From positions 1-14,771 of the forward strand of contig JAIPBB010000115.1 of NCBI GenBank assembly GCA_021739805.1: DNA of 14,771 nucleotides, read 5' to 3'. The notes beneath the pieces are model-generated. The model did no database searches. It was not told the origin of the DNA and saw nothing but the letters and a program-made list of their open reading frames with translations. Source of the DNA: Saprospiraceae bacterium (GTDB taxonomy: Bacteria; Bacteroidota; Bacteroidia; Bacteroidales; JAIPBB01). This document shows, piece after piece, positions 1-13,709 of this stretch. Position numbers and translations under genes: made by a program. Within the stretch, counting starts at the first letter, position 1; each line of letters opens with the position of its first letter.

Positions 1-2
1 GC

Positions 3-1034
3 GAACCGGATTACGTTTCTATAAACCCTTCTTTACCTATTGTTGATGAATTAATTAGTAGTGATAATGATGAAGCTGATTTATACTTTTATCATCCTGA
101 CCACCTTGGCTCAAGTAGTTTTATTTCTGATGTAAACGGGGATGTGAACCAGCATTTGCAATACCTTCCTTTTGGCGAATCATTTATTGACCAGCAAACA
201 AATCATAATATTAGGTTTACTTTTAGTAGTAAGGAGAAAGATAGTGAAACGGGGTTTGGTTATTTTGGGGCGAGGTATTATAATTCGGATATTTCTGTTT
301 GGTTATCTGTAGATCCGATGGCGGATAAATATCCGAGTTTATCTGCTTATAATTATTGTGCGAACAATCCGGTGATGTTGGTTGATCCGGATGGGATGAA
401 GATAAAAATCATACATAATGGAAATAAAGCTATTTATAAGGATGGAGAACTTTATCAAAGAAAGTTTCTATGCTTTGGATTAAAAAAATATGAAGGTAAT
501 GATCGTAAAATACTTCAAGCAGCAAGTGATTTGAATTTTTTAAGTAGTATTGATTCTGAAATTAATTGTCAAATAGAAACACTCGTAAAAAGTAAAAAAA
601 CTCATTTAATAGATTTGAACAATCCTAGTAGAAGAGGTGGTGTTCGACCAATGGGAATAAAAAATAAAACCCTTGCCAATCTCCTTTTATATGCAAGCTC
701 AAAAGGCTTAAAAATGGGTTCAAATATATCATATGATTTTAATGAAAAGGATATGGGAAAAAGATTAGCTAATTTTGGTCATGAAATTTTTCATGGATTC
801 GAATTAGATCAAGGAATTTTCTCATTGATAAATATTATAAATACACAAGGCAAAACAATTCCTTTAAATGAAATTAATGCAGTAAATCAAGGCAATAGAG
901 TGCGAGCTTATTTTGGAATTAGATTAAGAAATACATATGCACCAAATAAAATTAATAGATTAATACCTCAAGAATATCTTGATAATCCAATTAAAAATTT
1001 GTTTATTAAGCCAAAACCGTTTATTTTACAATAA
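3..1034 (+). CDS. Rhs/YD-repeat protein C-terminal part with putative metallopeptidase toxin tip (copy A; 5' end outside window)
   Basis: The reading frame is open to the left edge (first full codon at 3, reading EPDYVSINPSLP), so the gene starts before the window and the GTG at 144 is only an internal codon. The first ~130 codons are Rhs core: YHPDHLGSSSFISD, then QYLPFGE, the KEKD-x-ET-GFGYFGARYY block typical of Rhs core ends, and VDPDG ending at 395. After this the sequence becomes very AT-rich and encodes a ~213-residue variable tip. The tip contains HEIFH (780-794), a zincin zinc-binding motif, and about 25 residues later E-I-NAV...NRVR...LR-x-x-Y, where the Glu (870-872) is a candidate third ligand. 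Tip C shares this pattern. By analogy with polymorphic toxins, it is probably a secreted or surface-delivered peptidase toxin. Substrate and exact peptidase family are unknown. A small exported protein follows 29 bp downstream. Confidence 0.85.
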   Translation, partial: EPDYVSINPSLPIVDELISSDNDEADLYFYHPDHLGSSSFISDVNGDVNQHLQYLPFGESFIDQQTNHNIRFTFSSKEKDSETGFGYFGARYYNSDISVWLSVDPMADKYPSLSAYNYCANNPVMLVDPDGMKIKIIHNGNKAIYKDGELYQRKFLCFGLKKYEGNDRKILQAASDLNFLSSIDSEINCQIETLVKSKKTHLIDLNNPSRRGGVRPMGIKNKTLANLLLYASSKGLKMGSNISYDFNEKDMGKRLANFGHEIFHGFELDQGIFSLINIINTQGKTIPLNEINAVNQGNRVRAYFGIRLRNTYAPNKINRLIPQEYLDNPIKNLFIKPKPFILQ

Positions 1035-1063
1035 TCAGAGCATTAATTTAATAATTAATTAAA

Positions 1064-1639
1064 ATGAAAAATTTTATATTTAGAAAAATGAAAAATTTAG
1101 TTCTCTTTATTGCTTGTTTGATTTTATTAGTAGTCTTCAAAGCAAGTTATGCTCAAACTGAAGATTGTAATTATTCTCAAAATAAGTTTATTAGAAAAGC
1201 TTGTACAGAAGTTTGTAATATTTGTGGTCCACCCTATATTTTACCTATTAGAATTCAGAATATAGATTCTTGTATTCTAATAAGTGTTACAATGAGCGAA
1301 ATGAGATATGAATTTAAAAAGCACTCATCTATTAATTCAAGTCTTTTCTTAAAAAGAAAAGTTATTAGAACTTTAAAAAAAGATTTAATTTTAACTGTAC
1401 CAGATTCTGTTTTTAGTTATTATTATGATGATAAAATAATACTGAATAAAGAAGTTGAAAAAAAATATCTGGAAGGTAAAAAAAGTTTTTTGGATTATTA
1501 TTTTATTGATGATAAATTGAAAAATCAAGTAAAACATGAAGAGTCACTATCAATAATTTATTATTTGTTTAAGTTAAAGATTTTTACATATTGTGATTCT
1601 AACGGTGTTTTATGTATTTCAACTTGTAGTATTTATTAA
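1064..1639 (+). CDS. Exported small protein, putative immunity protein for tip A
   Basis: The 191-residue product is not recognised by family. Its N-terminus is a clear Sec signal peptide: basic MKNFIFRKMKN, a hydrophobic stretch LVLFIACLILLVVF, then a likely signal peptidase I site after SYA and before QTEDC. The mature part has several Cys (C-x3-C-x2-C near residues 47-54), consistent with a disulfide-bonded periplasmic protein. A second in-frame ATG at 1088 would give a slightly shorter signal peptide. It lies 29 bp after the tip A stop on the same strand, in the position that immunity genes occupy in Rhs and other polymorphic toxin loci. That position and the export signal are the only support for an immunity role; no homology is recognised. 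An exported immunity protein fits a toxin acting in the periplasm or at the cell surface. Confidence 0.75.
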   Translation: MKNFIFRKMKNLVLFIACLILLVVFKASYAQTEDCNYSQNKFIRKACTEVCNICGPPYILPIRIQNIDSCILISVTMSEMRYEFKKHSSINSSLFLKRKVIRTLKKDLILTVPDSVFSYYYDDKIILNKEVEKKYLEGKKSFLDYYFIDDKLKNQVKHEESLSIIYYLFKLKIFTYCDSNGVLCISTCSIY

Positions 1640-1660
1640 TTTTTTCGTAATGCTATTTTT

Positions 1661-2884
1661 ATGTTTTATTTTACAAATATAGCAATGCCGGTTTTTTATA
1701 TTAAATTAGGCGGTGGTTTTTCCCCAAGCCTTGTTGATGCTCATAGTGCAACATTAACTCCTATTGTAGGCAACATACAGGATATTGCAGATGGTTTATG
1801 GGATTATATTTATAATAATACAGAATGTGTAGATGGCGAACCCGATTATATTTCCATTGCTTCCAATTTACCAATAGTAGAAGATTTATTTAGCAGCAAT
1901 AATAATGAAACTGATTTATACTTTTACCACCCTGACCACTTGGGTAGTTCTTCATTTATCAGCGATGTAAATGGAGATGTAAATCAGCACCTTCAATATC
2001 TACCTTTTGGCGAGAGTTTTATTGACCAGCAAACAAATCATAATATTAGGTTTACTTTCTCTGCAAAAGAAAAAGACACGGAAACAAATTATTCGTATTT
2101 TTGGGCAAGGTATTATAATAGTGATATTAGTGTTTGGTTGAGTGTGGATCCGTTGGCTAGTAAATACCCTAGCATGAGTTCTTTTATGTATTGTGCTGGA
2201 AATCCGGTGATGTTGGTTGATCCGGATGGGAGAAAAATAAGACCTTCTTCAAACTATTCTAACGACTTGATTAATTCTGCAATTATTTCAATATTTAAGG
2301 GCAAGAATATTAGTGAATTATTCTTTACACAGAATAATAATTCTGAAAGTCCTAATTACGGAATAATATCTACTGCAAGTGGTTTTTCAAATCTTAATGA
2401 AAAACAATTTAGCAGAAAACTTAGGCGACACGGTCGAAAAAATAATATAAAATTCTCTAAAGAAGAAATTAAGGATGCATTCAATGTCTATAAAGTGATT
2501 GACCATTCTGCTGTTTTCGAGATATTTGCAACTAATAATGAATCAAATAAAGACAATAGCAGTTTTTCAGATTTTATGGGAAATGACAATATTACTAATT
2601 ATAAAATTCACAATAAAAGCTTAAATGAAGTAGCAGAGAACCTAGACCTTATTGAAGAAGGTTTTTCATATTGCCCGGATTCTGAAAACGATAAATTTTA
2701 TGATGTTGAGAAAATTAAAAATTCTAAGTCTGAATATCTTGATAAATTATGTGGTAATGACAGATTTAGAAAATACGGCAGAAGAAATTTTCTTATTAAT
2801 ACTACAAATCAAGATTTTTTAGAAAGCACATCTACTGTTAAAAAAACTCTTATTAATTTTAAAGCTGACGATATACCATGGTAA
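1661..2884 (+). CDS. Truncated Rhs core with unrecognised toxin tip (orphan copy B)
   Basis: The 407-residue product has three parts. Residues 1-14 are unlike Rhs. From Lys15 (1703) the sequence matches copy C from K-LGGGFSPSLVDAHS onward and ends at VDPDG near residue 190. Residues 191-407 form a charged, AT-rich variable tip in which no catalytic motif is recognised and no HExxH is present. All upstream YD repeats and any secretion domain are missing, so this looks like an orphan tip that would function only after recombination onto a full-length Rhs gene. The start at 1661 is uncertain: there is no Shine-Dalgarno, an in-frame ATG lies at 1685, and the frame is the same as that of the upstream immunity gene, whose stop is at 1637-1639. 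The stop overlaps the start of the next gene by 7 nt, which suggests translational coupling with its partner. Confidence 0.75.
   Translation: MFYFTNIAMPVFYIKLGGGFSPSLVDAHSATLTPIVGNIQDIADGLWDYIYNNTECVDGEPDYISIASNLPIVEDLFSSNNNETDLYFYHPDHLGSSSFISDVNGDVNQHLQYLPFGESFIDQQTNHNIRFTFSAKEKDTETNYSYFWARYYNSDISVWLSVDPLASKYPSMSSFMYCAGNPVMLVDPDGRKIRPSSNYSNDLINSAIISIFKGKNISELFFTQNNNSESPNYGIISTASGFSNLNEKQFSRKLRRHGRKNNIKFSKEEIKDAFNVYKVIDHSAVFEIFATNNESNKDNSSFSDFMGNDNITNYKIHNKSLNEVAENLDLIEEGFSYCPDSENDKFYDVEKIKNSKSEYLDKLCGNDRFRKYGRRNFLINTTNQDFLESTSTVKKTLINFKADDIPW
1703..2231 (+). repeat. Rhs core repeat, copy B (matches A 3-396 and C 4389-4917)
   Basis: DNA-level repeat shared by the three rhs copies. B and C match from the AAATTAGG-GG-GG codons at 1703 (C 4389) to the GATCCGGATGGGA end. 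A is visible only from position 3. All three are identical over the last 31 nt (A 366-396, B 2201-2231, C 4887-4917), immediately before the tips diverge. These repeats are the likely substrate for tip exchange by homologous recombination. Confidence 0.9.
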
Positions 2885-3483
2885 AAACAACAAAAAAAAT
2901 TATTATTATTTCAATAGTAATATTATTAATTGCTTCATGCAGTACTGAAAATTATTTTAATAATTTTATTAAGAAAAACTTTCCCGATAATTCATATAAT
3001 AAATGTGACTCCGCTGGATTTGTACATGGGAAAATAATCAGATTAGATTCGGTTTTTGCAGATGCAAACATTTGCATGATAAATGTAAATCATGGAGTAC
3101 TTGAATCTCCATATAGTATTTATAATGCAAAAACGGGAAAACTTACTGATAAATTTCATTTTGTCTATACGCAACAAATTAGAATAAAATGCGAAGACTA
3201 TATTTTAGATGATTATCCACTATTTAATTTTCCGGCGACTCTAATTAAAGAAACAACCCAAGAATGGTATGATTCAAAAGGTTTTTTATATAGAAAAACT
3301 TATTATGATAATAAGTTAGGTTATTTTGTTGTAATAGAATATTATCCAAAAACAGAATTAATTGAAAGTATCTCATATGGCTTAGATTCTACTGCTTATT
3401 TTTACAGAGATGGTAGATACAAAGGATATAGGAAAGATTATGAGAATAAGGTAGTAAAATTTGAAGTAGAATATTTTGATTAA
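2878..3483 (+). CDS. Putative lipoprotein, likely immunity protein for tip B
   Basis: The 201-residue product begins with a lipoprotein signal peptide: MVKTTKK, a hydrophobic run of Ile/Val/Leu, then the lipobox IAS-C with the lipidated Cys at residue 20. The mature part contains short repeated patterns resembling MORN or toxin-antitoxin-type antitoxin repeats (YDSKGFLYRKTYYDNKLGY and similar 'W-Y-D-x-x-G' and 'Y-x-D-G-x-Y' turns), but I would not assign a family from this. The ATG lies inside the last codons of the upstream Rhs copy B (overlap 2878-2884), which strongly suggests that the two are translated together as a toxin/immunity pair. Lipid anchoring places it at the periplasmic side of the inner membrane or at the outer membrane, so the cognate toxin probably acts outside the cytoplasm. 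The immunity role is inferred from position alone. Confidence 0.75.
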   Translation: MVKTTKKIIIISIVILLIASCSTENYFNNFIKKNFPDNSYNKCDSAGFVHGKIIRLDSVFADANICMINVNHGVLESPYSIYNAKTGKLTDKFHFVYTQQIRIKCEDYILDDYPLFNFPATLIKETTQEWYDSKGFLYRKTYYDNKLGYFVVIEYYPKTELIESISYGLDSTAYFYRDGRYKGYRKDYENKVVKFEVEYFD

Positions 3484-3500
3484 ATTTTAAAAAACTCAAA

Positions 3501-5555
3501 TTGAGTATAATTATCAAACATACGAAGAACATAGACTCCATGAGTGCCGTGAAATCGCAGCAAACTTTCAATTATTTGAACAATATCAGCTACGATAAAT
3601 TTGGAAATCGTGTGATAGTAAATTATGGAAACGGCACATCGGCAAACTATACTTACGACAGCCAGACACGCCGTCTTAGCAACCTGAAATCCTACGATTC
3701 TCAAAGCAATTTAATGCAAGATATTGACTACGATTATGATAATGCAGGTAATATTTCAGGTATTGAAAACTCGGCAACTGCAATAAATGGTTTGGGCGGT
3801 GTTTATGATTACGAATACGAATATGATTCACTTTATCGTTTAATAAGCTCGGCAGGTAGTTTCACTGACGTAAATCAAACAAACTACCCCTTTGCACTAG
3901 ATATGACTTACTCAGCTTCGGGAAATATAAGCAGCAAAGAACTAACTGCAACCACTTTGCTTAATGGAGCATCTACGAATATTGATTATGAAAGAAATTA
4001 CAGTTATAATCAAAACCAACCGCATACCATCGAAAGCATTACCGACCAGCTTAATGCAGATGATTTCTCTATGCAATGGGACCCAAACGGCAATATGACA
4101 CATTTTAATAGTTCTGCAACAGGAGAAACAAGACGAATGTGTTGGGATGAAGAAAATCGTTTGGCAGTTGTAAAAGACCCAAACTACGCAAGCCACTACA
4201 TATATGACGCCGGCGGTGAACGCACATGGAAAATCACAGGACCAATTGAGAGAATGAGCATAAATGGCGGTTTATATGTTGACCAAACAATGTTGGATTA
4301 CAAAACTCTTTACACCAGCCCATATATGGTTGTTTCTGATGCCGAATACACCAAGCATTTTTACGCCGAAAGCCAAAGGGTAACAACAAAATTAGGTGGC
4401 GGTTTCTCCCCAAGCCTTGTTGATGCTCATAGTACAACATTAACTCCTATTGTAGGCAACATACAAGATATTGCTGATGGTTTGTGGAATTATATTTATG
4501 AAAATACAAATTGTGTAGATGGCGAACCCGATTATATTTCCATTGCTTCCAATTTACAAATAGTAGAAGAATTATTTGGTAGTAATAATGATGAATCTGA
4601 TCTATACTTTTATCACCCCGATCATTTAGGAAGTTCTTCATTTATCAGTGATGTAAACGGGAATGTGAACCAGCATTTGCAATACCTTCCTTTTGGAGAG
4701 AGTTTTATTGACCAGCAAACAAATAATAATATTAGGTTTACTTTTAGTAGTAAGGAGAAGGATAGTGAGACCGGGTTTGGTTATTTTGGGGCTAGGTATT
4801 ATAATTCGGATATATCTGTTTGGTTGAGTGTTGATCCGTTGGCTAGTAAATACCCTAGCATGAGTTCTTTTATGTATTGTGCTGGAAATCCGGTGATGTT
4901 GGTTGATCCGGATGGGAGGAAGTTAAAGTTTGCAAAATATAAAGACTTAACTATAGAGCAGAAAGGTGGACGAACTAGGAAGGAATATAGACATGATAAA
5001 AGAATTGTAAAAGAATCACATAGGAATTTAAGAGTGAATTCAAATACTGGTGGTATAATTGTAAATGACTTACGAAGGGATAAAAGGGATCGTATTATTA
5101 TTGCAACAAGAAATGGAGAATCAGGTTTATCCCATGATAACACAACAATAATAATCAATGTAAATTATAAAATGCAAAACTTAGAAAAAGAAAGCCAACT
5201 ATTAAATATAACTATTTTATTAGCACATGAACTAGGGCATTCATGGTGTAAAAAATATGGATTGGATCTCAAACAACCAACGATTGACGATATGAGGGAA
5301 ATAGGATTTAAAAAGGGATTTGAAATTGTTGATTTTGTTAGAGGGGGAAGAGAAAGTAATGCTGTTCATATTGAAAATAGGGTTAGAGGAGAACTAAATT
5401 TAAAACTGCGAGATAATTATTCAGGTGAAATTCCACCGTATTACGATTTAAACAAAGAATCAAAAAGTTTTAATTATAGTAATGGAAGCATATATCAAGA
5501 TTTTGGAATTGTTAGAAAAAAACGACCTTTCTCTTATTTACTAAACTTGCATTAA
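3501..5555 (+). CDS. Rhs/YD-repeat fragment with putative metallopeptidase toxin tip (copy C)
   Basis: The 684-residue frame can start at TTG 3501 or, more conventionally, ATG 3540. An in-frame stop at 3477-3479 means it is not joined to anything upstream. It enters in the middle of YD repeats (ISYDKFGNRVIVNYGNGTS, then YTYDSQTRRL, DYDYDNAGNI, YEYDSLYRL, MQWDPNGNM, HYIYDAGGERTWK), continues with K-LGGGFSPSLVDAHS, YHPDHLGSSSFISD and KEKDSETGFGYFGARYY, and ends the core at VDPDG near residue 473. Residues ~475-684 are the tip. It has HELGH at 576-580 (5226-5240) and E-SNAV-x-x-ENRVR-x-EL-x-LKLR-x-x-Y from Glu618, which together predict a zinc metallopeptidase related to, but clearly diverged from, tip A. 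A full-length Rhs N-terminus is missing, so this is an orphan or displaced tip. The core half is less AT-rich than the tip, as expected for a horizontally acquired tip. A lipoprotein gene follows 24 bp downstream. Confidence 0.85.
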   Translation: MSIIIKHTKNIDSMSAVKSQQTFNYLNNISYDKFGNRVIVNYGNGTSANYTYDSQTRRLSNLKSYDSQSNLMQDIDYDYDNAGNISGIENSATAINGLGGVYDYEYEYDSLYRLISSAGSFTDVNQTNYPFALDMTYSASGNISSKELTATTLLNGASTNIDYERNYSYNQNQPHTIESITDQLNADDFSMQWDPNGNMTHFNSSATGETRRMCWDEENRLAVVKDPNYASHYIYDAGGERTWKITGPIERMSINGGLYVDQTMLDYKTLYTSPYMVVSDAEYTKHFYAESQRVTTKLGGGFSPSLVDAHSTTLTPIVGNIQDIADGLWNYIYENTNCVDGEPDYISIASNLQIVEELFGSNNDESDLYFYHPDHLGSSSFISDVNGNVNQHLQYLPFGESFIDQQTNNNIRFTFSSKEKDSETGFGYFGARYYNSDISVWLSVDPLASKYPSMSSFMYCAGNPVMLVDPDGRKLKFAKYKDLTIEQKGGRTRKEYRHDKRIVKESHRNLRVNSNTGGIIVNDLRRDKRDRIIIATRNGESGLSHDNTTIIINVNYKMQNLEKESQLLNITILLAHELGHSWCKKYGLDLKQPTIDDMREIGFKKGFEIVDFVRGGRESNAVHIENRVRGELNLKLRDNYSGEIPPYYDLNKESKSFNYSNGSIYQDFGIVRKKRPFSYLLNLH
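4389..4917 (+). repeat. Rhs core repeat, copy C
   Basis: Counterpart of the repeat at 1703-2231. The match is mosaic. From 4665 to 4825 copy C resembles copy A (about 11 differences in 161 nt), and from 4817 to 4918 it matches copy B with a single difference in 102 nt. Confidence 0.9.
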
Positions 5556-5579
5556 ATTAAATTCAAAAATCTCGAAATA

Positions 5580-6164
5580 ATGAACAAAATTAAAATATTG
5601 ATTATCTTTTTTATAACTTTTATTATTATATTTAATATTGGTTGTCAAATATTTTCTAAAAAAAGTAATAGTATTAATAGCTTTGAATGCAAGTTAATAG
5701 AACTAAATGAAAATGAAAATATTGATTCAATTTTTATTGTTAAGCCAGAAATTATTAGTTATTATGATACTCTTATAAATAGTAATAAGTATGATAATCA
5801 GGTATTATATTATTTTAATAACCTTGAAGTTCCAGCATCTAAAAAAGCTTTTTATCTTAAAAGAAACAATAATTCTTCCATATCTATAAAAGATCTCATT
5901 AATGGAAATAATATGACAAGATTTGATTCAACGGAATATAATAATTTTAATAATCTAATTATCAATGTAGAACAAGGATTTTTTGCTCAATATTGCGATG
6001 TTGAGAATACAGGAGGAGAAATTTGTTTCTTTATAGTGAAGAACAAGAATAAGATTTCATTTAAATACTATTCATATACTTTATCATATATGCATTTATT
6101 AAAGACAGATAAACTAAAAATTAAAAACGCATTAAAATTAATGTATTTTTTAAATGGTATTTAA
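5580..6164 (+). CDS. Putative lipoprotein, likely immunity protein for tip C
   Basis: The 194-residue product starts MNKIKILIIFFITFIIIFNIGC, a lipoprotein signal peptide with a candidate lipobox (FNIG-C; Ile at -2 and Asn at -3 make it non-ideal). The mature part is rich in Asn, Lys and Ile with no recognised domain. It lies 24 bp after the stop of the tip C toxin, on the same strand, in the immunity position. It shows no evident similarity to the other two candidate immunity proteins, even though tips A and C appear to be the same peptidase class. That would be expected for specific toxin/immunity pairs. The transcript is probably ended by the hairpin at 6262-6291. The function is inferred from position and localisation only. 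Confidence 0.72.
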   Translation: MNKIKILIIFFITFIIIFNIGCQIFSKKSNSINSFECKLIELNENENIDSIFIVKPEIISYYDTLINSNKYDNQVLYYFNNLEVPASKKAFYLKRNNNSSISIKDLINGNNMTRFDSTEYNNFNNLIINVEQGFFAQYCDVENTGGEICFFIVKNKNKISFKYYSYTLSYMHLLKTDKLKIKNALKLMYFLNGI

Positions 6165-6182
6165 TAGTGGGTCGTGTAGGTC

Positions 6183-6200
6183 GTGTACCATATGGAGCTT
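6183..6200 (+). repeat. 18-bp direct repeat, first copy
   Basis: GTGTACCATATGGAGCTT occurs here and again, identically, at 6339-6356. It contains the palindrome CCATATGG. The first copy is preceded by a short near-duplication (GTCGTGTAG-GTCGTGTAC). The second copy ends where the IS1-like element appears to begin. Confidence 0.85.
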
Positions 6201-6261
6201 TTTGTAAAATTTGAAAACTAATTATCGCAGAAACAACAATTTAAATATATTTGTATAGGTC

Positions 6262-6291
6262 AAAAACAAGGATAATAATCCTTGTTTTTTT
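6262..6291 (+). terminator. Rho-independent terminator-like hairpin
   Basis: A perfect 12-bp inverted repeat (AAAAACAAGGAT / ATCCTTGTTTTT) around an AATA loop, with the T run continuing on the 3' side. It is ~100 bp after the last gene of the rhs array and is symmetrical enough (A run / T run) to act in both directions. A TAnnTTTG match (TATATTTG, 6246-6253) lies just upstream but has no -33 partner. Confidence 0.75.
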
Positions 6292-6338
6292 GTTTAGAGT
6301 TGTCAAAAGCCTTCTGTGAAAGTGTTTTATAAACAGTT

Positions 6339-6356
6339 GTGTACCATATGGAGCTT
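6339..6356 (+). repeat. 18-bp direct repeat, second copy
   Basis: Identical to 6183-6200. The two copies bracket 138 bp that includes the terminator hairpin. Confidence 0.85.
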
Positions 6357-7105
6357 GATAATGCTGGCAAGGCATGATATTATTGGATTTTGTGAAGATT
6401 TAATATTTTGGTTATGAATTGTAAATATTGTAATGAAAAATGTGTGAAAAAAGGTAAAAGGTCGGGTAAACAAAGATATCGTTGCAGCAATTGCATGAAG
6501 TATCAATTACGTACTTACAAGAAAACAAGAATTGACGATTCAAAGGTTGATTTTCTCAGAAAACTAAATAACGAAGGAGTTGGAATTAGTTCTATTTCAC
6601 GATTATTAAACATATCCAAATCAAGTGTTCAACGGGTTATAAAAAGATTATACAATCAAATTCAACAACCTGTTTTCAATGAATCAAATCAAAGCTACGA
6701 AATTGATGAATTACGCACTTATGTGGGAAGTAAAAGCAATGAATGTTGGGTCATTTACGCTATTAACAAACTAAATGGTGTAGTTATAGACATTGCCGTT
6801 GGAAGAAGAACCAAAGAAAATATTCGTAAAGTTGTGAATACAGTATTATCTTTAAATCCCAAACGGATATTTACTGATGGATTAGTAACCTATAAAGGTT
6901 TAATTCCGCAAACAATTCACAGAGTATTTCAATATAATACTAATAAAATTGAACGTAAGAATTTAACCTTGCGAACTCATATCAAACGCCTCGTTAGAAA
7001 AACTATTTGCTATTCAAAAAGCACCCAAATGCTTGAGGCTTGTTTGAAGATTTATTTGTGGGCTTGAATAATTGATAGGAAATAGTCTAAATTTGACATT
7101 ATGTA
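6357..7105 (+). mobile_element. IS1-family insertion sequence (ends tentative)
   Basis: A complete IS1-type transposase gene with short flanks. The left end TGATAATGCTGGCAA (from ~6356) resembles the IS1 left terminal repeat. The reverse complement of the right flank (TACATAATGTCAAATTTA, ending ~7105) shares only ATAATG and a CAA with it, so the inverted repeats are weak and the right boundary is approximate. I found no 8-9 bp target duplication flanking these ends. The element lies between the rhs array and the HTH gene. Confidence 0.55.
6414..7067 (+). CDS. IS1-family transposase, single-ORF type
   Basis: The 217-residue product starts at ATG 6414; the upstream in-frame TTG at 6408 is less likely. 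It catalyses cut-and-paste or replicative transposition of its own element. The N-terminus is an InsA-like zinc finger (C3, C6 and C24, C27 in CxxC pairs within KYCNEKC and RCSNC), followed by a helix-turn-helix (GISSISRLLNISKSSVQRVI, ~58-77). The C-terminal half is the InsB-like catalytic domain with the DDE triad: Asp98 (YEIDELRTY), Asp155 (RIFTDGL) and Glu180 (NKIERKN). Unlike classical IS1, in which InsA and InsB are joined by a -1 frameshift, both parts are in one uninterrupted frame, as in known single-ORF members of the family. All catalytic residues and the C-terminal helix (MLEACLKIYLWA) are present, so it appears intact. Confidence 0.93.
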   Translation: MNCKYCNEKCVKKGKRSGKQRYRCSNCMKYQLRTYKKTRIDDSKVDFLRKLNNEGVGISSISRLLNISKSSVQRVIKRLYNQIQQPVFNESNQSYEIDELRTYVGSKSNECWVIYAINKLNGVVIDIAVGRRTKENIRKVVNTVLSLNPKRIFTDGLVTYKGLIPQTIHRVFQYNTNKIERKNLTLRTHIKRLVRKTICYSKSTQMLEACLKIYLWA

Positions 7106-7146
7106 TTAACCAAACAGAATTTTATTAAGCTTTTAGCCATAATAAA

Positions 7147-7407
7147 TTACCGACAAATATAAAGAAACCCATTTACTTCATATTCTCCCAAATGTTCAAT
7201 AATTATTTGTAATTCAGCAGGAGTAAAAGGTTTTTTATGAGCCATATTTAATTTGTGTTTAATTGGTTTTAGCCATTTATTAAAAGTTGGAAGTGAAACT
7301 TTATATTTTGCAGCCAGAGAAGTTATTGTTTCCGGTTGGTTAAATTTATGAAATCTATCTATAGAATTTGGTCTGGGTTCGGTCATGGTGGAATAATTTG
7401 CGCACAA
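7147..7407 (-). CDS. Small helix-turn-helix protein, function unknown
   Basis: The 86-residue product has a probable helix-turn-helix: ETITSLAAKYKVSLPTFNKWLKP (~26-48), with the pattern 'AxxYxVSxxTFxKW' like a recognition helix. A second predicted helix follows (FTPAELQIIIEHLGEY, ~61-76). The start may be ATG 7405-7407 or the internal Met at 7384-7386, which gives a protein starting MTEPRPN. The neighbouring IS1 element runs convergently, and its stop is 79 bp away. Three 10-bp direct repeats lie 68-97 bp upstream of the start (7475-7504). It may be a small DNA-binding regulator or a leftover of a mobile element. No family is assigned. Confidence 0.6.
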   Translation of the reverse strand: MCANYSTMTEPRPNSIDRFHKFNQPETITSLAAKYKVSLPTFNKWLKPIKHKLNMAHKKPFTPAELQIIIEHLGEYEVNGFLYICR

Positions 7408-7474
7408 TTTAATAGATATAATAATAGGATTTACATTTTCTGGATGCTCATATTGGAATTTTCTTAATTTTGCC

Positions 7475-7504
7475 CTTATTGACCACTATTGACCCTTATT
7501 GACT
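7475..7504 (-). promoter_or_regulatory. Three tandem 10-bp direct repeats upstream of the HTH gene
   Basis: On the + strand: CTTATTGACC, ACTATTGACC, CTTATTGACT, each 10 bp, about one helical turn apart, sharing TATTGAC. They lie 68-97 bp upstream of the minus-strand HTH gene, so they could be an operator. A second pair of 11-bp repeats (CCATTGTTATA, CCATTGTTGTA) follows at 7536-7557. Confidence 0.4.
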
Positions 7505-8506: not shown

Positions 8507-8665
8507 AACCAATTTTCGAAAAAACCATATCTGAATTTATATTTTGGTAGTAGGAATGTTTGAAAGAAAATCAAAAACATGACTTAGAACACTTTTTTTA
8601 CCATTTTTTTTGTATAATATTGCAACCTTAATATATTGTTGTTTTATGTTGATAAACAAATTATT

Positions 8666-9967
8666 ATGTCTGAATTTATTGCATTAATAATATCAGTAAT
8701 TCTTCAATTTGTGGCTGCATATTTCTCACTTCGATTAATAAAGGTTACTAATAGAAACATTTCCTGGATATTTATTTCCATAGCTTTTGTTTTAATGGCT
8801 TTCAGAAGATTAATCGAAATTTTTCATTATTTAAAAATATTCGACCTTAATGACTTGAACACCTTATCTAACTGGTTTGCTGTTGCTATATCTATATTTG
8901 TGTTTATGGGAATTGTGATGGTTGGTGAAATATTTTACTCAATTAAAAAAGTTAAAAAAGCTCAGCGAGATTCAGAAACACGTTTTCAAACTATTTTCAA
9001 CAATAGCAGTGATGAAATTTTTGTGTCCGATATAAATGCAAACATAATTGAAGTGAATGAAGTAGCCTGTAAAACCTTAGGTTACACAAAGGAAGAATTA
9101 ATGAAAATGAATTTCGAAGACATTAAATCACCTAAGTATGCTAACCTATTACCATTAACAATTCAAAAAGTATTAGAGGAAGGAAGCCTGACTTTCGAGT
9201 CGGAAAATATGACAAAGGATGGTACTATAATCCCTGTTGAGTTTAAAAGTAGAGTTATTGACTATAAGGACGATAAAGCATTTTTATGTATTTCCCGTAA
9301 CACAACTGAAAGGCGACAAACTGAGCGTAAAATATTAAATGCAATTATCGAAACTGAAGAAAAAGATAAGGAAAGATTTGCTCGCGATTTGCACGATGGT
9401 TTAGGAACTTTACTTTCAAGTATTAGTATTTATGTTAGCTTGATTAAATCTGATGATGTTAAAGATGAAGAAAGAAAGGAATTATTAGATTATACAAAAG
9501 GTTTGGTTGATGAAGCCATTCGCAATACTAAAGAAATTGCTAATAATCTCCGACCAAATATTATCAGTCGTTTTGGACTAGTTGCCTCCATTAAATCTTT
9601 CGTTGAAAAAATTAATGAAACTTCTCTAATTAAAATAAATTTTGATTCTAATATTGAACGCGATTCTATCAATAAAGACCTAGAAGTTACACTTTATCGT
9701 ATAATAAACGAACTTATAAATAATACTCTCAAACATGCTTCTGCTGATAATATTGACATCAATTTAAAATGTGATGGCAAAATCATTCTCCTTAAATATG
9801 TTGATGATGGAATTGGCTTTGATGTTGATAGAACCTTGAAAACCAAAACTCATAAAGGGATGGGACTATCAAATATTATTAGTCGTGCAAAAGCAGTAAA
9901 TGGAACTGTGAAATTTACTAGTGTAAAAGAAAAAGGTATTGATATTTTAATTCAAATAAGACTTTAG
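8666..9967 (+). CDS. Membrane-bound PAS sensor histidine kinase, NarX/DegS/LiaS type
   Basis: The 433-residue product is counted from ATG 8666; the frame also has an upstream TTG at 8636. Three membrane helices lie at ~3-25, 32-50 and 70-92. A cytoplasmic PAS domain follows (~103-215: FQTIFNNSSDEIFVSDINANI...GYTKEEL...KDGTIIPVEF...). The dimerisation/phosphoacceptor domain is of the HisKA_3 type, with His243 in RFARDLHDGLGTLLSS. The HATPase_c domain has the N box NELINNTLKHA (348-358), the G1 box DDGIGFD (380-386) and the G2 region KGMGLSNI (397-404). It should autophosphorylate on His243 and pass the phosphate to the response regulator encoded 134 bp downstream. The signal is unknown: there is no large periplasmic domain, so sensing is likely through the membrane segment or the PAS domain. 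Confidence 0.92.
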   Translation: MSEFIALIISVILQFVAAYFSLRLIKVTNRNISWIFISIAFVLMAFRRLIEIFHYLKIFDLNDLNTLSNWFAVAISIFVFMGIVMVGEIFYSIKKVKKAQRDSETRFQTIFNNSSDEIFVSDINANIIEVNEVACKTLGYTKEELMKMNFEDIKSPKYANLLPLTIQKVLEEGSLTFESENMTKDGTIIPVEFKSRVIDYKDDKAFLCISRNTTERRQTERKILNAIIETEEKDKERFARDLHDGLGTLLSSISIYVSLIKSDDVKDEERKELLDYTKGLVDEAIRNTKEIANNLRPNIISRFGLVASIKSFVEKINETSLIKINFDSNIERDSINKDLEVTLYRIINELINNTLKHASADNIDINLKCDGKIILLKYVDDGIGFDVDRTLKTKTHKGMGLSNIISRAKAVNGTVKFTSVKEKGIDILIQIRL

Positions 9968-9970
9968 TTG

Positions 9971-9987
9971 TTGAAATATTATTTCAA
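9971..9987 (+). terminator. Short inverted repeat after the kinase gene
   Basis: TTGAAAT-ATT-ATTTCAA, a perfect 7-bp stem with a 3-nt loop, starts 4 nt after the kinase stop. It is all A/T except one G-C pair per arm and has no T run directly after it, so it is at best a weak terminator or 3' mRNA hairpin. Confidence 0.3.
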
Positions 9988-10064
9988 TTATTAAATCTCA
10001 CTTTATTTTTGAAAAACCAAAAATTTCAAATCATTCTTTACTTCTATAGCATTCAAAAAATTAC

Positions 10065-10072
10065 TATTTTTG
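10065..10072 (+). promoter_or_regulatory. Candidate -7 box for the response regulator gene
   Basis: TATTTTTG matches the Bacteroidota TAnnTTTG consensus, 29 nt before the ATG at 10102. No clear -33 TTTG is present. It would allow the regulator to be made separately from the kinase. Confidence 0.35.
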
Positions 10073-10101
10073 TTGCAGCATTATAATTATCGATTTTAAT
10101 A

Positions 10102-10755
10102 ATGAAAAAAATAAGAACCATAATTGTTGATGACCATGAGATTTTTCGCACTGGACTTAAATTATTACTAAGCAAAGTTGAAAATGTAAAGGTGGTTGCA
10201 GAAGCTTCTAATGGGCAGGAACTTATGGAAGTTATTAAAAAACATGAAGCAGATCTGGCATTTATGGATATAAATATGCCAATTCTTGATGGAATTGAAG
10301 CCACAGAGCAAGTCTTATCCAAATACCCTAATTTAAAAATTATTGCCCTTACAACTTTTTGCGATAGTGAGCATTTCAATAAAATGATTTATGCTGGAGT
10401 TGAAGGATTTATGTTAAAAAACTCAACTTTGGATGATTTTCGAAGAGCTATTGAAAAAGTTAGCCAGGGTGGCAATTATTTTTCTGAAGAAATGCTTGTG
10501 AAATGCACAAAAAACTTTGTTCTACAGCAGACCGGCGAAAAGGAAAAAATGAAAATTGCAGAACTCTCAACACGTGAAATTGAAGTTCTTGAATTAATTT
10601 GTAAAGGTTATTCAAATGCCAAAATAGGAGAAAAGTTATTCATCAGCGACCGTACAGTTGAACGACATAAAACCAATCTAATCAGCAAAACAGAAACTAA
10701 AAACACAGTAAATCTAGTTATTTACGCTTTTAAGAATAAACTAATTGAACTTTAA
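10102..10755 (+). CDS. NarL/FixJ-family response regulator (REC-LuxR HTH)
   Basis: The 217-residue product has an N-terminal receiver domain (~4-120). It carries the acidic pocket at Asp10-Asp11 (IIVDDHEIFR), phosphoacceptor Asp56 (FMDINMP), Thr84 (ALTTF) and Lys106 (FMLKNS), all as expected for an active receiver. The C-terminal LuxR/GerE helix-turn-helix (~153-212) has LSTREIEVLELICKGYSNAK followed by KLFISDRTVERHKTNLISK, the canonical DNA-recognition sequence. It is the natural partner of the HisKA_3 kinase directly upstream. The kinase and regulator have family-typical lengths and are probably co-regulated. The targets are unknown. The rnf promoter, 76 bp downstream of the stop, is one local possibility, but no binding site is visible. 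Confidence 0.93.
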   Translation: MKKIRTIIVDDHEIFRTGLKLLLSKVENVKVVAEASNGQELMEVIKKHEADLAFMDINMPILDGIEATEQVLSKYPNLKIIALTTFCDSEHFNKMIYAGVEGFMLKNSTLDDFRRAIEKVSQGGNYFSEEMLVKCTKNFVLQQTGEKEKMKIAELSTREIEVLELICKGYSNAKIGEKLFISDRTVERHKTNLISKTETKNTVNLVIYAFKNKLIEL

Positions 10756-10951: not shown

Positions 10952-11815
10952 ATGAATAGCGTAATTTTATATTCAGTAATAAGTCTAGGTGGTATTGGTG
11001 TTGCTGCTTCAATAATATTATATTTTATTGCTCAAAAATTTAAGGTTATAGAAGACCCTAAAATTGACGAGGTTGACGAAGCTCTTCCCGGTGCAAATTG
11101 TGGTGGATGCGGATATGCAGGTTGCAGGGCTTTCGCTGAAGCAATGGTTAAATCTGAATCTTTAGATGGTTTTAATTGTCCGGTTGGAGGTTCTGATGTT
11201 ATGACTATTGTTGCTGGAATTTTAGGACGTGAAGCTGTTATTGCTGATCCTGAAATTGCGGTTGTCAGATGTTCAGGTTCAAAAGTTAACGCTCCTAAAA
11301 AAGTTGAATTCGATGGACCAAAGACTTGTGCTTTTGCTCATGCTTTGTATGCCGGCGAAAGTGGATGTCCTAATGGTTGTTTAGGCTTAGGCGATTGTGT
11401 TGTGTCATGCGATTTTGATGCAATTTATATGGACGAAGAAACAGGTCTTCCAATTGTTAAGGATAATTGTATCGCTTGTGGTGCTTGCGTTAAAGCATGC
11501 CCAAGAGCTATTATCGAACTAAGACCTAAAGGAAAGAAAGACAGAAGAATTTTTGTTTCATGTGTAAACACCGAAAAAGGTGGACCTGCTAAGAAAAATT
11601 GTGCAGTCGCTTGTATTGGCTGCGGGAAATGTGAAAAAGTATGCAAGTTTGAAGCAATTACAATTGTGAATTTCCTTGCTTATATCGACCCGGAAAAATG
11701 TAAATTGTGTAGGAAATGCCAACCTGAATGCCCAACTGGAGCAATTCATGAATTAAATTTTCCACCAAGAAAAGTGAAAACGGAAGTTGTTGAAGAAGAA
11801 GCTAAAACAGATTAA
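10952..11815 (+). CDS. rnfB: RnfB, iron-sulfur subunit of ferredoxin:NAD+ oxidoreductase (Rnf complex)
   Basis: The 287-residue product is a membrane-anchored electron-transfer subunit of the Rnf complex. This complex couples electron flow between reduced ferredoxin and NAD+ to Na+ or H+ export across the inner membrane. Residues ~5-28 form the membrane helix. The Fe-S domain characteristic of RnfB follows: Cys50, Cys53, Cys58 (NCGGCGYAGC) and Cys76. Two ferredoxin-like regions come next, with a C173-x2-C176-x2-C179-x3-C183-P cluster and its partners at ~139-153, and C221, C224, C227, C231 plus C250-x2-C253-x2-C256-x3-C260-P. The C-terminus is a short acidic/basic tail. The start ATG 10952 has no Shine-Dalgarno, which is normal for this phylum, and is 84 nt downstream of the predicted transcription start. 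It is the first gene of the operon. Confidence 0.95.
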   Translation: MNSVILYSVISLGGIGVAASIILYFIAQKFKVIEDPKIDEVDEALPGANCGGCGYAGCRAFAEAMVKSESLDGFNCPVGGSDVMTIVAGILGREAVIADPEIAVVRCSGSKVNAPKKVEFDGPKTCAFAHALYAGESGCPNGCLGLGDCVVSCDFDAIYMDEETGLPIVKDNCIACGACVKACPRAIIELRPKGKKDRRIFVSCVNTEKGGPAKKNCAVACIGCGKCEKVCKFEAITIVNFLAYIDPEKCKLCRKCQPECPTGAIHELNFPPRKVKTEVVEEEAKTD

Positions 11816-11850
11816 ATAATTAGTATTAAAAATTATTGTTCTTTAAATAT

Positions 11851-11882
11851 ATTGTTAAATTGTTAAACTGTTAAATTGTTAA
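11851..11882 (+). repeat. 4 x 8-bp tandem repeat
   Basis: ATTGTTAA, ATTGTTAA, ACTGTTAA, ATTGTTAA in tandem, 36 nt after the rnfB stop. Confidence 0.85.
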
Positions 11883-11891
11883 AACCACTAG

Positions 11892-11934
11892 TCATCCCGA
11901 GTGTTTCAAGCTTGCGAGAAACGTATCGAGGGGG
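11892..11934. repeat. Imperfect palindromic intergenic repeat (GTCATCCCGAG type)
   Basis: Starts GTCATCCCGAG and ends TATCGAGGGGGA, with an inner stem GTTTC-AAGCTTGCGA-GAAAC. This type of sequence is a familiar dispersed intergenic element in environmental Bacteroidota and other bacteria. Only one copy is in the window, so the repeat nature is from recognition. Confidence 0.55.
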
Positions 11935-12092
11935 ACGGGTTGAATGTTAAATTCTTAATAACAACTTAATGACACAAATGACGCCCGAAGGGCAAATGAC
12001 ACGAAAAGTCAGAAGTAGAGAGACCGAAAAAAATATGATTTAAGAACAAGGATTAACGATTTTTGATTTAAGATGTAAATGACAATTAATGA

Positions 12093-12125
12093 CCCGCCTA
12101 CGCTAAAGCTACAGACGGGCAGGCG
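12093..12125. repeat. Imperfect inverted repeat, CCCGCCTACG...ACGGGCAGGCG
   Basis: The arms CCCGCCT and AGACGGG can pair with one mismatch around a loop with GCTAAAGCTAC. The right part, as its reverse complement GCCTGCCCGT, recurs at 7792-7801. It is likely a dispersed intergenic repeat of this genome. Confidence 0.5.
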
Positions 12126-12206
12126 CGAAGCAAATAACGCCTGAAGGGCAAATGACAGCGAAGCACAATTAACGAAAGAAAATAACAAAAGAAATTATAA
12201 ACAATC

Positions 12207-12211
12207 GGAGG
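12207..12211 (+). promoter_or_regulatory. Strong Shine-Dalgarno fixing a TTG start for rnfC
   Basis: GGAGG, 8 nt before TTG 12220. It is the only convincing Shine-Dalgarno upstream of a gene in this window, and it points exactly to the TTG from which the canonical RnfC N-terminus is read. Confidence 0.85.
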
Positions 12212-12219
12212 AAATCATA

Positions 12220-13548
12220 TTGAGAACTTTTAAGATTGGAGGTGTTCATCCACCTGAAAACAAATTATCAGAAAACAAAGCAATAGAAACACTTGCTATT
12301 CCAAAGAAAGCATTTATTCCTGTTACTCAGCATTTAGGTGCTCCTTCAGTTTTGAAGGTAAACAGGGGAGACCAGGTGAAAGTTGGAACTTTGCTTGCTC
12401 AAGGCGAAGCATTTATTTCAGCAAGTGTTCACTCAAGTGTTTCTGGAAAAGTTGCTAAAATCGATAATCTTATCGACCCAAGTGGATATAAAAAATCAAC
12501 AATAGTAATTGATGTTGAAGGTGATGAATGGGAAGCTTCAATTGATACTTCTAAAGATATTAAAAGAGAAATTACAGCAACAGCTGAAGAAATAGTTCAG
12601 AAAATGAAAGAGCTGGGTGTTGTTGGTTTAGGTGGAGCAACATTTCCTTCTCATGTTAAGTTAATGGTTCCTGAAGGCAAAAAAGCAGAAGTACTTATTA
12701 TTAATGGTGTTGAATGCGAACCTTATCTTACATCTGACCATAGATTAATGCTTGAAAAATCTGAAGAAATGCTTATTGGCGTTCAGATTTTGATGAAAGG
12801 ACTTAAAGTTGACAGAGCTTTAATCGGAATTGAAAACAATAAAAAAGACGCAATAGAAAAGATTACAGAATTAGCTAAGAAATTTAAAGGTATTGAAGTT
12901 TATGCTTTAAAAGTGCAATATCCGCAAGGAGCCGAAAAACAATTAATAAAAGCATTAATAAATCGTGAAGTTCCATCAGGAAAACTACCAGTCGAAGTTG
13001 GTGCTGTAGTAAATAATGCCGGAACTGCTTTTGCAGTTTATGAAGCTGTTCAAAAGAACAAACCATTAGTTGAAAGAGTTGTTACAATCACAGGAAAAGC
13101 AGTTAAAAATCCTGCTAATTTTATGGTTAGAGTTGGTACTCCTGTTTCAGAGTTAATTGAAGCTGCAGGTGGAATGCCCGAAGATACCGGTAAAATTATT
13201 GGCGGTGGACCAATGATGGGAAAAGCATTGGTTTCTCCCGAAACCCCAATCGTAAAAGGCTCTTCAGGAATTTTATTAATGACGAAAAAGGAGTCAAAAA
13301 GACCAACTGTCCAAAACTGTATAAGATGTGCTCAATGTATTTCTGTTTGCCCTATGGGATTAGAACCTGTTCTTTTAGCTCAACTTACTGAATTATCAGA
13401 TTTTGAGCAAACTGAAAAAGCCAGGATTCTTGATTGTATCGAATGTGGTTCATGTCATTACACATGCCCGGCAGGAAGACCTTTGCTTGATAATATCAGA
13501 TTAGGCAAAGCAAAAACAAACCAAATGATTAGGAATAGAAATAAATAG
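12220..13548 (+). CDS. rnfC: RnfC, NADH/FMN- and Fe-S-containing subunit of the Rnf complex
   Basis: The 442-residue product is the peripheral subunit where the Rnf complex exchanges electrons with NAD+/NADH. Translation starts at TTG 12220 behind a GGAGG. The protein then begins MRTFKIGGVHPPENK, which is the conserved RnfC N-terminus, so the start is secure. Domain order: N-terminal barrel (~1-100); nucleotide/FMN-binding domain with GLGGATFPSHVK (136-147) and INGVECEPYLTSDHR (162-176), as in complex I NuoF; a soluble ligand-binding beta-grasp region (~285-350); and two 4Fe-4S motifs, Cys367/370/373/377 and Cys406/409/412/416 (both CxxCxxCxxxCP). The length is as for Bacteroidota RnfC, without the long Ala/Lys-rich tail of gammaproteobacterial RnfC. 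It sits 404 bp after rnfB and 161 bp before rnfD, unusually wide spacing for subunits of one complex. Confidence 0.96.
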   Translation: MRTFKIGGVHPPENKLSENKAIETLAIPKKAFIPVTQHLGAPSVLKVNRGDQVKVGTLLAQGEAFISASVHSSVSGKVAKIDNLIDPSGYKKSTIVIDVEGDEWEASIDTSKDIKREITATAEEIVQKMKELGVVGLGGATFPSHVKLMVPEGKKAEVLIINGVECEPYLTSDHRLMLEKSEEMLIGVQILMKGLKVDRALIGIENNKKDAIEKITELAKKFKGIEVYALKVQYPQGAEKQLIKALINREVPSGKLPVEVGAVVNNAGTAFAVYEAVQKNKPLVERVVTITGKAVKNPANFMVRVGTPVSELIEAAGGMPEDTGKIIGGGPMMGKALVSPETPIVKGSSGILLMTKKESKRPTVQNCIRCAQCISVCPMGLEPVLLAQLTELSDFEQTEKARILDCIECGSCHYTCPAGRPLLDNIRLGKAKTNQMIRNRNK

Positions 13549-13592
13549 TACATGGATTATTAGTACATAGATTATTAGTACATAGTACATAG
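13546..13592 (+). repeat. 15-bp tandem repeat starting at the rnfC stop codon
   Basis: TAGTACATGGATTAT (13546-13560), TAGTACATAGATTAT (13561-13575), then TAGTACATAGTACATAG (13576-13592). The first unit begins with the TAG stop codon of rnfC. Confidence 0.85.
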
Positions 13593-13596
13593 AAAA

Positions 13597-13633
13597 ATTA
13601 GATATTAGAAAATAGAAATTAGATATTAGAAAA
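13597..13633 (+). repeat. 16-bp direct repeat in the rnfC-rnfD spacer
   Basis: ATTAGATATTAGAAAA at 13597-13612 and again at 13618-13633, a 21-bp period. Further low-complexity (AAATTTC-rich) sequence follows to 13680. No promoter is visible in this 161-bp spacer. Confidence 0.85.
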
Positions 13634-13709
13634 CAAAGAACAGAGTTTCCAAATTTCTAATTTCAAATTTCAAACAAAAAAATTACGAATCATTATAGAA
13701 ACTAAATAT

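What the first reader, a model, noticed from the sequence alone, without database searches (positions are those of the whole stretch)
1..6164. Array of three Rhs tip + exported-partner cassettes sharing one recombining core
Seen: three Rhs cores are each followed by a different C-terminal domain and a small exported protein gene, all on the + strand and tightly packed. Copies B and C lack the N-terminal part of an Rhs protein. Known: in enterobacterial Rhs and CDI loci, orphan tip/immunity modules downstream of the main gene act as a reserve for tip switching. Inference: this is a Bacteroidota version of such an array, with the main gene starting left of the window.
Basis: partly seen in the sequence, partly recalled or inferred. 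Interest (0 to 1): 0.75.

Follow-up and report, generated by a model that had tools for sequence, protein, structure and literature searches.

The report
Array of swappable toxin-tip and partner genes
A probable Bacteroidota bacterium carries a row of three different toxin-like protein tips, each with its own small partner gene that is predicted to make an exported antidote, in an arrangement that looks like a store of interchangeable weapons and antidotes.

Summary
Three Rhs core ends (3-395, 1703-2230, 3537-4916) are each followed by a different C-terminal tip and a small gene with a predicted N-terminal export signal, all on the + strand. The cores are 75-87% identical and recombining: copy C is a mosaic, A-like at 4649-4816 and B-like on both sides (0 of 2000 shuffles as clustered). 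The contig begins inside core A, so the main gene is not in view. In four related Bacteroidales-type genomes the core recurs 11-20 times; two complete copies are SpvB/TcdB-mid/Rhs genes of 3,054-3,105 aa, many others short orphan cassettes. In equal windows around eight main genes, orphans lie downstream on the same strand (17 against 0 upstream). One cassette is 96% identical over 1.5 kb between two species, behind cores of different length. So it is a displaced-tip array, a known kind. The less expected part is the partner: predicted exported in 48 of 54 cassettes of this group (controls 34 of 87), and in all 16 with an HExxH tip, but only in 51 of 85 across the phylum. Best reading: envelope-acting toxins with exported immunity. 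Nothing was tested at the bench; export calls come from a crude script.

The parts
3..395 (+). Rhs core end, copy A (open at the contig edge)
   Evidence: TIGR03696 E 1e-19; repeats
396..1034 (+). Tip A, HEIFH motif; no direct Pfam match, but 33% identical over 189 aa to the tip of P0008, which passes the M91 cut-off
1064..1639 (+). Partner A, predicted signal peptide; only itself found in the protein database
1661..2230 (+). Rhs core fragment, copy B (homology to the core starts at 1703)
2231..2884 (+). Tip B, no recognised motif; only itself found in the protein database
2878..3483 (+). Partner B, predicted lipoprotein
3501..4916 (+). Rhs core fragment, copy C (resemblance to relatives' cores starts near 3535)
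4649..4816 (+). A-like segment inside core C (mosaic; B-like on both sides)
4917..5555 (+). Tip C, HELGH motif; Peptidase_M91 26.3 bits alone (cut-off 25), 19.6 bits within the whole ORF
5580..6164 (+). Partner C, hydrophobic N-terminus, lipoprotein-like

Best explanation
This is the 3' part of a SpvB/TcdB-type Rhs polymorphic toxin locus of a probable Bacteroidota bacterium. A long main gene, expected to the left, would carry an export signal, an SpvB/TcdB-mid shell part and the Rhs core, and would display one tip. Each cassette is core end + tip + partner. Homologous recombination in the shared core end exchanges tips together with their partners, and displaced tips stay behind as truncated orphans (B and C, possibly A). 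Tips A and C are zinc-metallopeptidase-like toxins; the partners are their immunity proteins, exported because the toxins act in the cell envelope or pass through it. Shown by sequence: cassette order, mosaic core, pairwise inheritance and transfer in relatives, export signals as predicted by a script. Inferred: toxicity, immunity, site of action, delivery, expression of the orphans, the main gene on the left.
For: Mosaic core C: 98 informative sites, segment 4649-4816 has 34 A-like and 4 B-like, outside 6 and 54; 0 of 2000 shuffles have as few runs, 0 of 500 as strong a segment. Two complete main genes in relatives have SpvB (E 2e-28, 2.6e-31), TcdB_midN and RHS and signal-like N-termini by eye. 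In equal windows up- and downstream of 8 main genes: 17 orphans downstream on the same strand, 0 upstream, 0 on the other strand (one of the 8 had a window of only 668 bases; 7 of the 8 were chosen because matches clustered there). The six closest tip pairs (E below 1e-70), each between different species genomes, all have matching partners; the closest is 97.9% in the tip and 96.5% in the partner, one block 96.2% over 1,542 columns that starts inside the core end, with 542 against 102 aa of open frame before the core end. Partner export 48 of 54 in G001-G004 plus window against 34 of 87 control ORFs (Fisher P 2.5e-9); after collapsing tip families 32 of 37. HExxH tips: 16 of 145 against a mean of 0.85 in shuffles, all 16 with an exported partner. 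Tip C passes the M91 cut-off when scanned alone.
Against: In the phylum sample only 51 of 85 partners look exported, and some genomes have none (G021 0 of 4, G023 0 of 3, G069 0 of 3, G091 0 of 4). The location does not simply follow the main gene: G023 and G069 main genes have signal-like N-termini (by eye) but no exported partner, and the G063 main gene shows none at its first ATG although 6 of 7 partners there look exported. The export calls are a hydrophobicity script, not SignalP. Tip C misses the M91 cut-off within the whole ORF, tip A matches no Pfam family directly, tip B nothing. Single-sequence structure models were unusable (B mean pLDDT 37.2; C 35.4). No main gene is seen for this window.
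Confidence: 0.7

Rival explanations
1. The array is mainly a defensive bank: the partners are expressed and protect against neighbours' tips, and the truncated tips are inert remnants.
For: Orphan CdiI is made while the orphan toxin does not appear to be, in E. coli EC93 (PMC3150448, passages). Copies B and C show no export signal of their own by eye, and partners have their own start codons. Three of 59 core-end places look broken (tips of 2, 5 and 65 aa).
Against: Most tips are open frames of 100 aa or more (55 of 59 places), and HExxH motifs are far above chance. Decay would be expected in unused tips.
Confidence: 0.3
2. The partners are exported accessory proteins (for instance anchors or chaperones of the tip) and not immunity proteins.
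For: Of 46 partners scanned, 1 matches YxiG-like and 2 MORN_2, and no other Pfam family is matched at E 0.01.
Against: They change with the tips; toxin-then-immunity order is the predominant order in polymorphic toxin loci (PMC3482391 section 41).
Confidence: 0.15
3. Assembly artefact: reads from several loci with a common core were collapsed into one contig.
For: The contig breaks inside a core, as assemblies do at repeats; it is a short contig without a held genome.
Against: A like arrangement is found in long contigs of other genomes, for example G099 4.38 Mb and G063 2.84 Mb, and cassettes recur in four related genomes. B and C cores begin at different places behind different sequence.
Confidence: 0.07
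4. The tips act on eukaryotic cells (Tc-like or M91-effector-like), and bacteria are not the target.
For: SpvB/TcdB-mid parts are shared with Tc proteins; Pfam describes M91 as 'effector protein'.
Against: A partner after nearly every tip (54 of 55) is what antibacterial toxins need; exported partners point to the producer's own envelope as the place at risk.
Confidence: 0.15

Closest known systems
TcdB/TcaC-type polymorphic toxins with RHS repeats (Zhang et al. 2012, PMC3482391; section 41, first part of section 38, and passages by term search seen)
   Same: Signal peptide, SpvB, integrin-like repeats, RHS, variable C-terminal tips including HExxH peptidases (Tox-MPTase2 in Bacteroidetes), Tox-JAB-1 with RHS in Bacteroidetes, standalone cassettes in toxin-immunity order.
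   Different: That survey calls all but a few immunity proteins cytoplasmic and Imm65 (partner of Tox-JAB-1) the only lipoprotein in its collection; here predicted export is the rule in the group of the window, across many unrelated tip families.
Enterobacterial rhs and cdi orphan tip/immunity modules (PMC3967940: abstract and passages; PMC3150448: passages)
   Same: Main gene followed by truncated orphan modules; exchange by recombination in the conserved part; orphan modules tested there are functional.
   Different: Other delivery proteins. The passages seen name no export signal on the immunity proteins; that these are mostly cytosolic is otherwise recalled.
VgrG2b C-terminal metallopeptidase and its immunity protein in Pseudomonas aeruginosa (PMC6899460; abstract and outline seen)
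   Same: Zinc metallopeptidase toxic in the bacterial periplasm, opposed by a cognate immunity protein.
   Different: Carried on VgrG and fired by a T6SS; no cassette array is mentioned in what I saw.
TANFOR polymorphic toxins of Bacteroidetes (PMC7073777; passages seen)
   Same: Bacteroidetes, predicted Sec signal on about 87% of the toxins, variable C-termini, downstream immunity gene.
   Different: TANFOR leader instead of SpvB/Rhs; the tested toxin is a DNase; T9SS export is hypothesised there.

Membership tests
Rhs polymorphic toxin | Rhs-associated core ending just before a variable tip | tested here: met
   TIGR03696 in core A; RHS_repeat in C; identity ends near the DPDG codons in all three
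Rhs polymorphic toxin | Tip followed by a small immunity gene in toxin-immunity order | tested here: inconclusive
   Order met 3 of 3 in the window; 54 of 55 cassettes of G001-G004 plus window have a downstream ORF; immunity function not tested
TcdB/TcaC-type system | Signal peptide, SpvB and TcdB-mid parts in the main gene | tested here: inconclusive
   Met in two relatives' main genes (signal by eye); the window has no main gene in view
Orphan (displaced) tip array | Orphans downstream of the main gene on the same strand | tested here: inconclusive
   Relatives and other genomes of the phylum sample: 17 down, 0 up, 0 opposite in equal windows around 8 main genes (7 loci chosen for clustering); window itself not testable
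Orphan (displaced) tip array | Shared core segment with signs of recombination | tested here: met
   Mosaic core C; cassette exchange between species in relatives
Peptidase_M91 | Profile match over the curated cut-off, with HExxH | tested here: inconclusive
   Tip C 26.3 bits alone but 19.6 within the ORF, cut-off 25; tip A no direct match. Filed as metallopeptidase-like only
Known immunity family | Profile match of the partner | tested here: not met
   The three window partners match no Pfam family at E 1
T9SS substrate | C-terminal sorting domain | tested here: not met
   No such Pfam domain in two relatives' main genes or in the three tips; other routes by T9SS not excluded

The most novel reading that the evidence does not exclude
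In this Bacteroidales group the whole Rhs/SpvB tip reservoir is aimed at the cell envelope: peptidase, JAB and, judged by eye, papain-like and membrane-active tips are paired with dozens of undescribed families of exported or lipoprotein immunity proteins, so that the compartment of immunity follows the tip's chemistry. Because such tips would be harmless in the cytoplasm, orphan tips can be kept and even translated at little cost, which would let arrays grow long.
Probability: 0.4. Interest if true: 0.6.

Novelty: new variant of a known kind. Interest (0 to 1): 0.42.

Why it matters
It gives a Bacteroidota counterpart of the enterobacterial orphan-tip arrays with breakpoints visible in sequence, and it points to a large set of uncharacterised tip/partner pairs (111 tip families in 145 cassettes by single linkage) whose partners, in the group of the window, are mostly predicted to be exported, against the general statement in the 2012 survey. 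That makes the question 'does the site of immunity follow the toxin's site of action?' directly testable.

Tried and rejected
Tip B: the protein search with its region found only itself, no profile relation to the JAB tips, no Pfam match, structure model unusable; no function is claimed. Partner A: only itself found. Both searches see only relatives that share a few exact 5-residue words. Tip C: no credible solved-structure relative (best E 0.13), model unusable, so no fold search was made. The core on viral contigs: no relative; on plasmids: 1,065 of 72,556 records match, all below 60% identity, so nothing points to a mobile replicon for this locus. A closer genome was sought in a phylum sample of 395 (at most 4 candidates scored per genome): the best core there is 48% identical, in G001. 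P0003, P0005 and P0006 (72-85% identical, each with another tip) share a listed longest-contig length of 78,651, which suggests one contig with three copies in a close relative, but its context could not be fetched. A first idea that a signal peptide on the main gene dictates exported partners failed: G023 and G069 have the signal and no exported partner, G179 has it with 2 of 4, and G063 lacks it at the first ATG with 6 of 7 exported (main-gene signals judged by eye). A first count of orphans (16 downstream, 0 upstream, 1 opposite around 11 main genes) was unfair, because 0-3.1 kb was held upstream and 0.7-10.1 kb downstream; one search repeats it in equal windows after fetching more upstream DNA. 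A repeated flank (22 hits of 29-311 bp, 14 of them directly before a core end) is a possible second recombination site; not pursued.

Rows dropped: 4 of 59 core-end places (tips of 2, 5 and 65 aa, and one of 50 aa cut by a contig end). In one search, 90 of 121 phylum ORFs were kept (complete tip of at least 80 aa, last 60 residues not seen before); 85 of the 90 had a partner ORF. The 20 regions (16 genomes) were picked by hand, most from the listing and one, because matches clustered there, so they give no prevalence; the other 48 phylum loci came automatically, whose genome samples appear to overlap (same handles). Related tips remain counted apart in the 48 of 54 figure; one search gives the collapsed count.
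Full report
What is there. Three Rhs core ends lie in the first 6.2 kb, each followed by a different tip and a small gene, all on the + strand. Core A alone matches TIGR03696 at E 1e-19. Pairwise DNA identities are 74.9% (A-B), 81.6% (A-C) and 86.9% (B-C), and identity drops away just past the DPDG codons. The window appears to be the whole contig and begins inside core A, so nothing can be said of the gene to its left; no genome is held for it. The best protein match with a name, 81% identical over 68% of copy C, is from a 'Bacteroidota bacterium' (P0002).

The core recombines. At 98 sites where A and B differ and C agrees with one of them, C follows B, then A (4649-4816: 34 against 4), then B again (outside: 6 against 54). 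None of 2000 shuffles had as few runs and none of 500 as strong a segment. This is gene conversion or crossover among the copies or with copies elsewhere.

Relatives. A genome scan gave four loci at 42-46% core identity, all from MAGs titled Bacteroidales or Bacteroidetes; one title names goat abomasum. Searches of these four whole genomes found 20, 19, 11 and 12 core matches. G003 and G002 have complete long frames of 3,112 and 3,054 codons; G004 has frames of 2,930 and 2,519 codons that run off contig edges; in G001 the closest copies sit in frames of 985 and 773 codons, and long frames (2,272, 2,116) hold only distant copies (34% and 28%). Many further matches keep only the last 60-70 core residues. 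The two complete main genes carry SpvB, FG-GAP, TcdB_midN and RHS domains and signal-like N-termini by eye. In equal windows up- and downstream of 8 main genes (one in G002, seven in other genomes of the phylum sample) 17 orphans lie downstream on the same strand, none upstream and none on the other strand; the G002 window was only 668 bases, and the other seven loci were chosen because matches clustered there. In 296 genomes drawn from the phylum, 112 have the Rhs core over the cut-off.

Tips and partners travel together. Among 55 cassettes of G001-G004 and the window there are 40 tip pairs by blastp and 8 partner pairs. The six closest tip pairs, each between two species genomes, have matching partners; of the other 34 tip pairs one has. 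The closest pair (G003 and G001) is one block of 1,542 columns at 96.2% that starts inside the core end and stops about 110 bp past the partner; before it the same diagonal is at background, with 542 in-frame residues before the core end in one genome and 102 in the other. That is what a cassette exchange leaves. No window tip is in such a pair.

Export of the partners. With a script that asks for a 10-residue hydrophobic stretch without charges near the N-terminus, 48 of 54 partners in G001-G004 and the window qualify, against 34 of 87 control ORFs of 100-320 aa from the same loci (Fisher P 2.5e-9); in the phylum sample 51 of 85 against 19 of 97 (P 2.5e-8). Another script gave 45 of 56 against 36 of 114. 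Collapsing tips into families leaves 32 of 37 and 41 of 69. The trait is not universal: G021, G023, G069 and G091 have 0 of 4, 0 of 3, 0 of 3 and 0 of 4. The window has 3 of 3.

Tip chemistry. Of 55 tips 9 match Toxin-JAB1, one Ntox44, one M91 (tip C) and a few others weakly. HExxH (no proline inside) occurs in 16 of 145 tips against a shuffle mean of 0.85, and in 0 of 139 partners. All 16 HExxH tips have an exported partner, against 83 of 123 for the rest (Fisher P 0.006). In the window, tip A aligns with the tip of P0008 (33% over 189 residues, E 1e-14 in a small set), and P0008 passes the M91 cut-off there. Tip C scores 26.3 bits for M91 when scanned alone (cut-off 25) and 19.6 within the whole ORF. 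Tip B and partner A have no detected relative among about 5.8 billion proteins at the sensitivity of that search.

How it most likely works. A Sec-exported SpvB/Rhs shell presents one tip; recombination in the core end swaps tip and partner as a unit, and displaced cassettes remain as orphans. Exported partners fit toxins that act in, or pass through, the envelope. VgrG2b, a zinc metallopeptidase toxic in the periplasm with a cognate immunity protein (PMC6899460, abstract and outline), is a tested precedent for that chemistry. Toxicity, immunity, delivery and switching are inferred here.

Against the literature. Orphan arrays and switching are known in enterobacteria (PMC3967940, abstract and passages; PMC3150448, passages). 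SpvB/RHS toxins and cassettes, Bacteroidetes included, are in the 2012 survey, which states that all but a few immunity proteins are cytoplasmic and that Imm65 is the only lipoprotein in its collection (PMC3482391, first part of section 38; section 41; passages). In eight full-text searches I saw no listing that describes exported partners as the rule for Bacteroidota Rhs arrays; of most hits only titles and the start of abstracts were seen, and most subscription papers are not held.

Verdict. The finding is real and its array reading is right in kind. The new element is the predicted export of most partners in this group, strongest for metallopeptidase-like tips. Interest is moderate.

Noticed in passing
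window 6180-7067: An IS1-family transposase ORF (DDE_Tnp_IS1, E 1.3e-25) directly follows the array, with a 21-bp direct repeat at 6180-6200 and 6336-6356; the inverted pairs listed in 6100-7500 (five) look like chance.
   Followed up: partly
window 8636-10755: By reading only: a PAS-type sensor kinase followed by a LuxR-type response regulator.
   Followed up: no
window 10952-14711: By reading only: genes like rnfB, rnfC and rnfD, so the array sits beside chromosomal core genes.
   Followed up: no
L047:200-1972 (minus strand): A JAB-like tip appears cut short and fused in frame to what looks like its exported partner: a 416-residue 'tip' without a separate partner.
   Followed up: no
L092, L093: A main gene (2,442 aa) without a signal-like N-terminus at its first ATG; all four partners counted in that genome look cytoplasmic.
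   Followed up: partly
L045, L046, L047, L049: A repeated flank stands directly before orphan core ends in G001 and, in shorter pieces, elsewhere (14 of 22 hits over the G001-G004 loci).
   Followed up: partly
G288:C27:27457-27693: An Rhs core match inside an open frame of 9,840 codons.
   Followed up: no
window 11975-12001 and 12131-12157: A 27-bp direct repeat, 93% identical, between the rnfB-like and rnfC-like genes.
   Followed up: no
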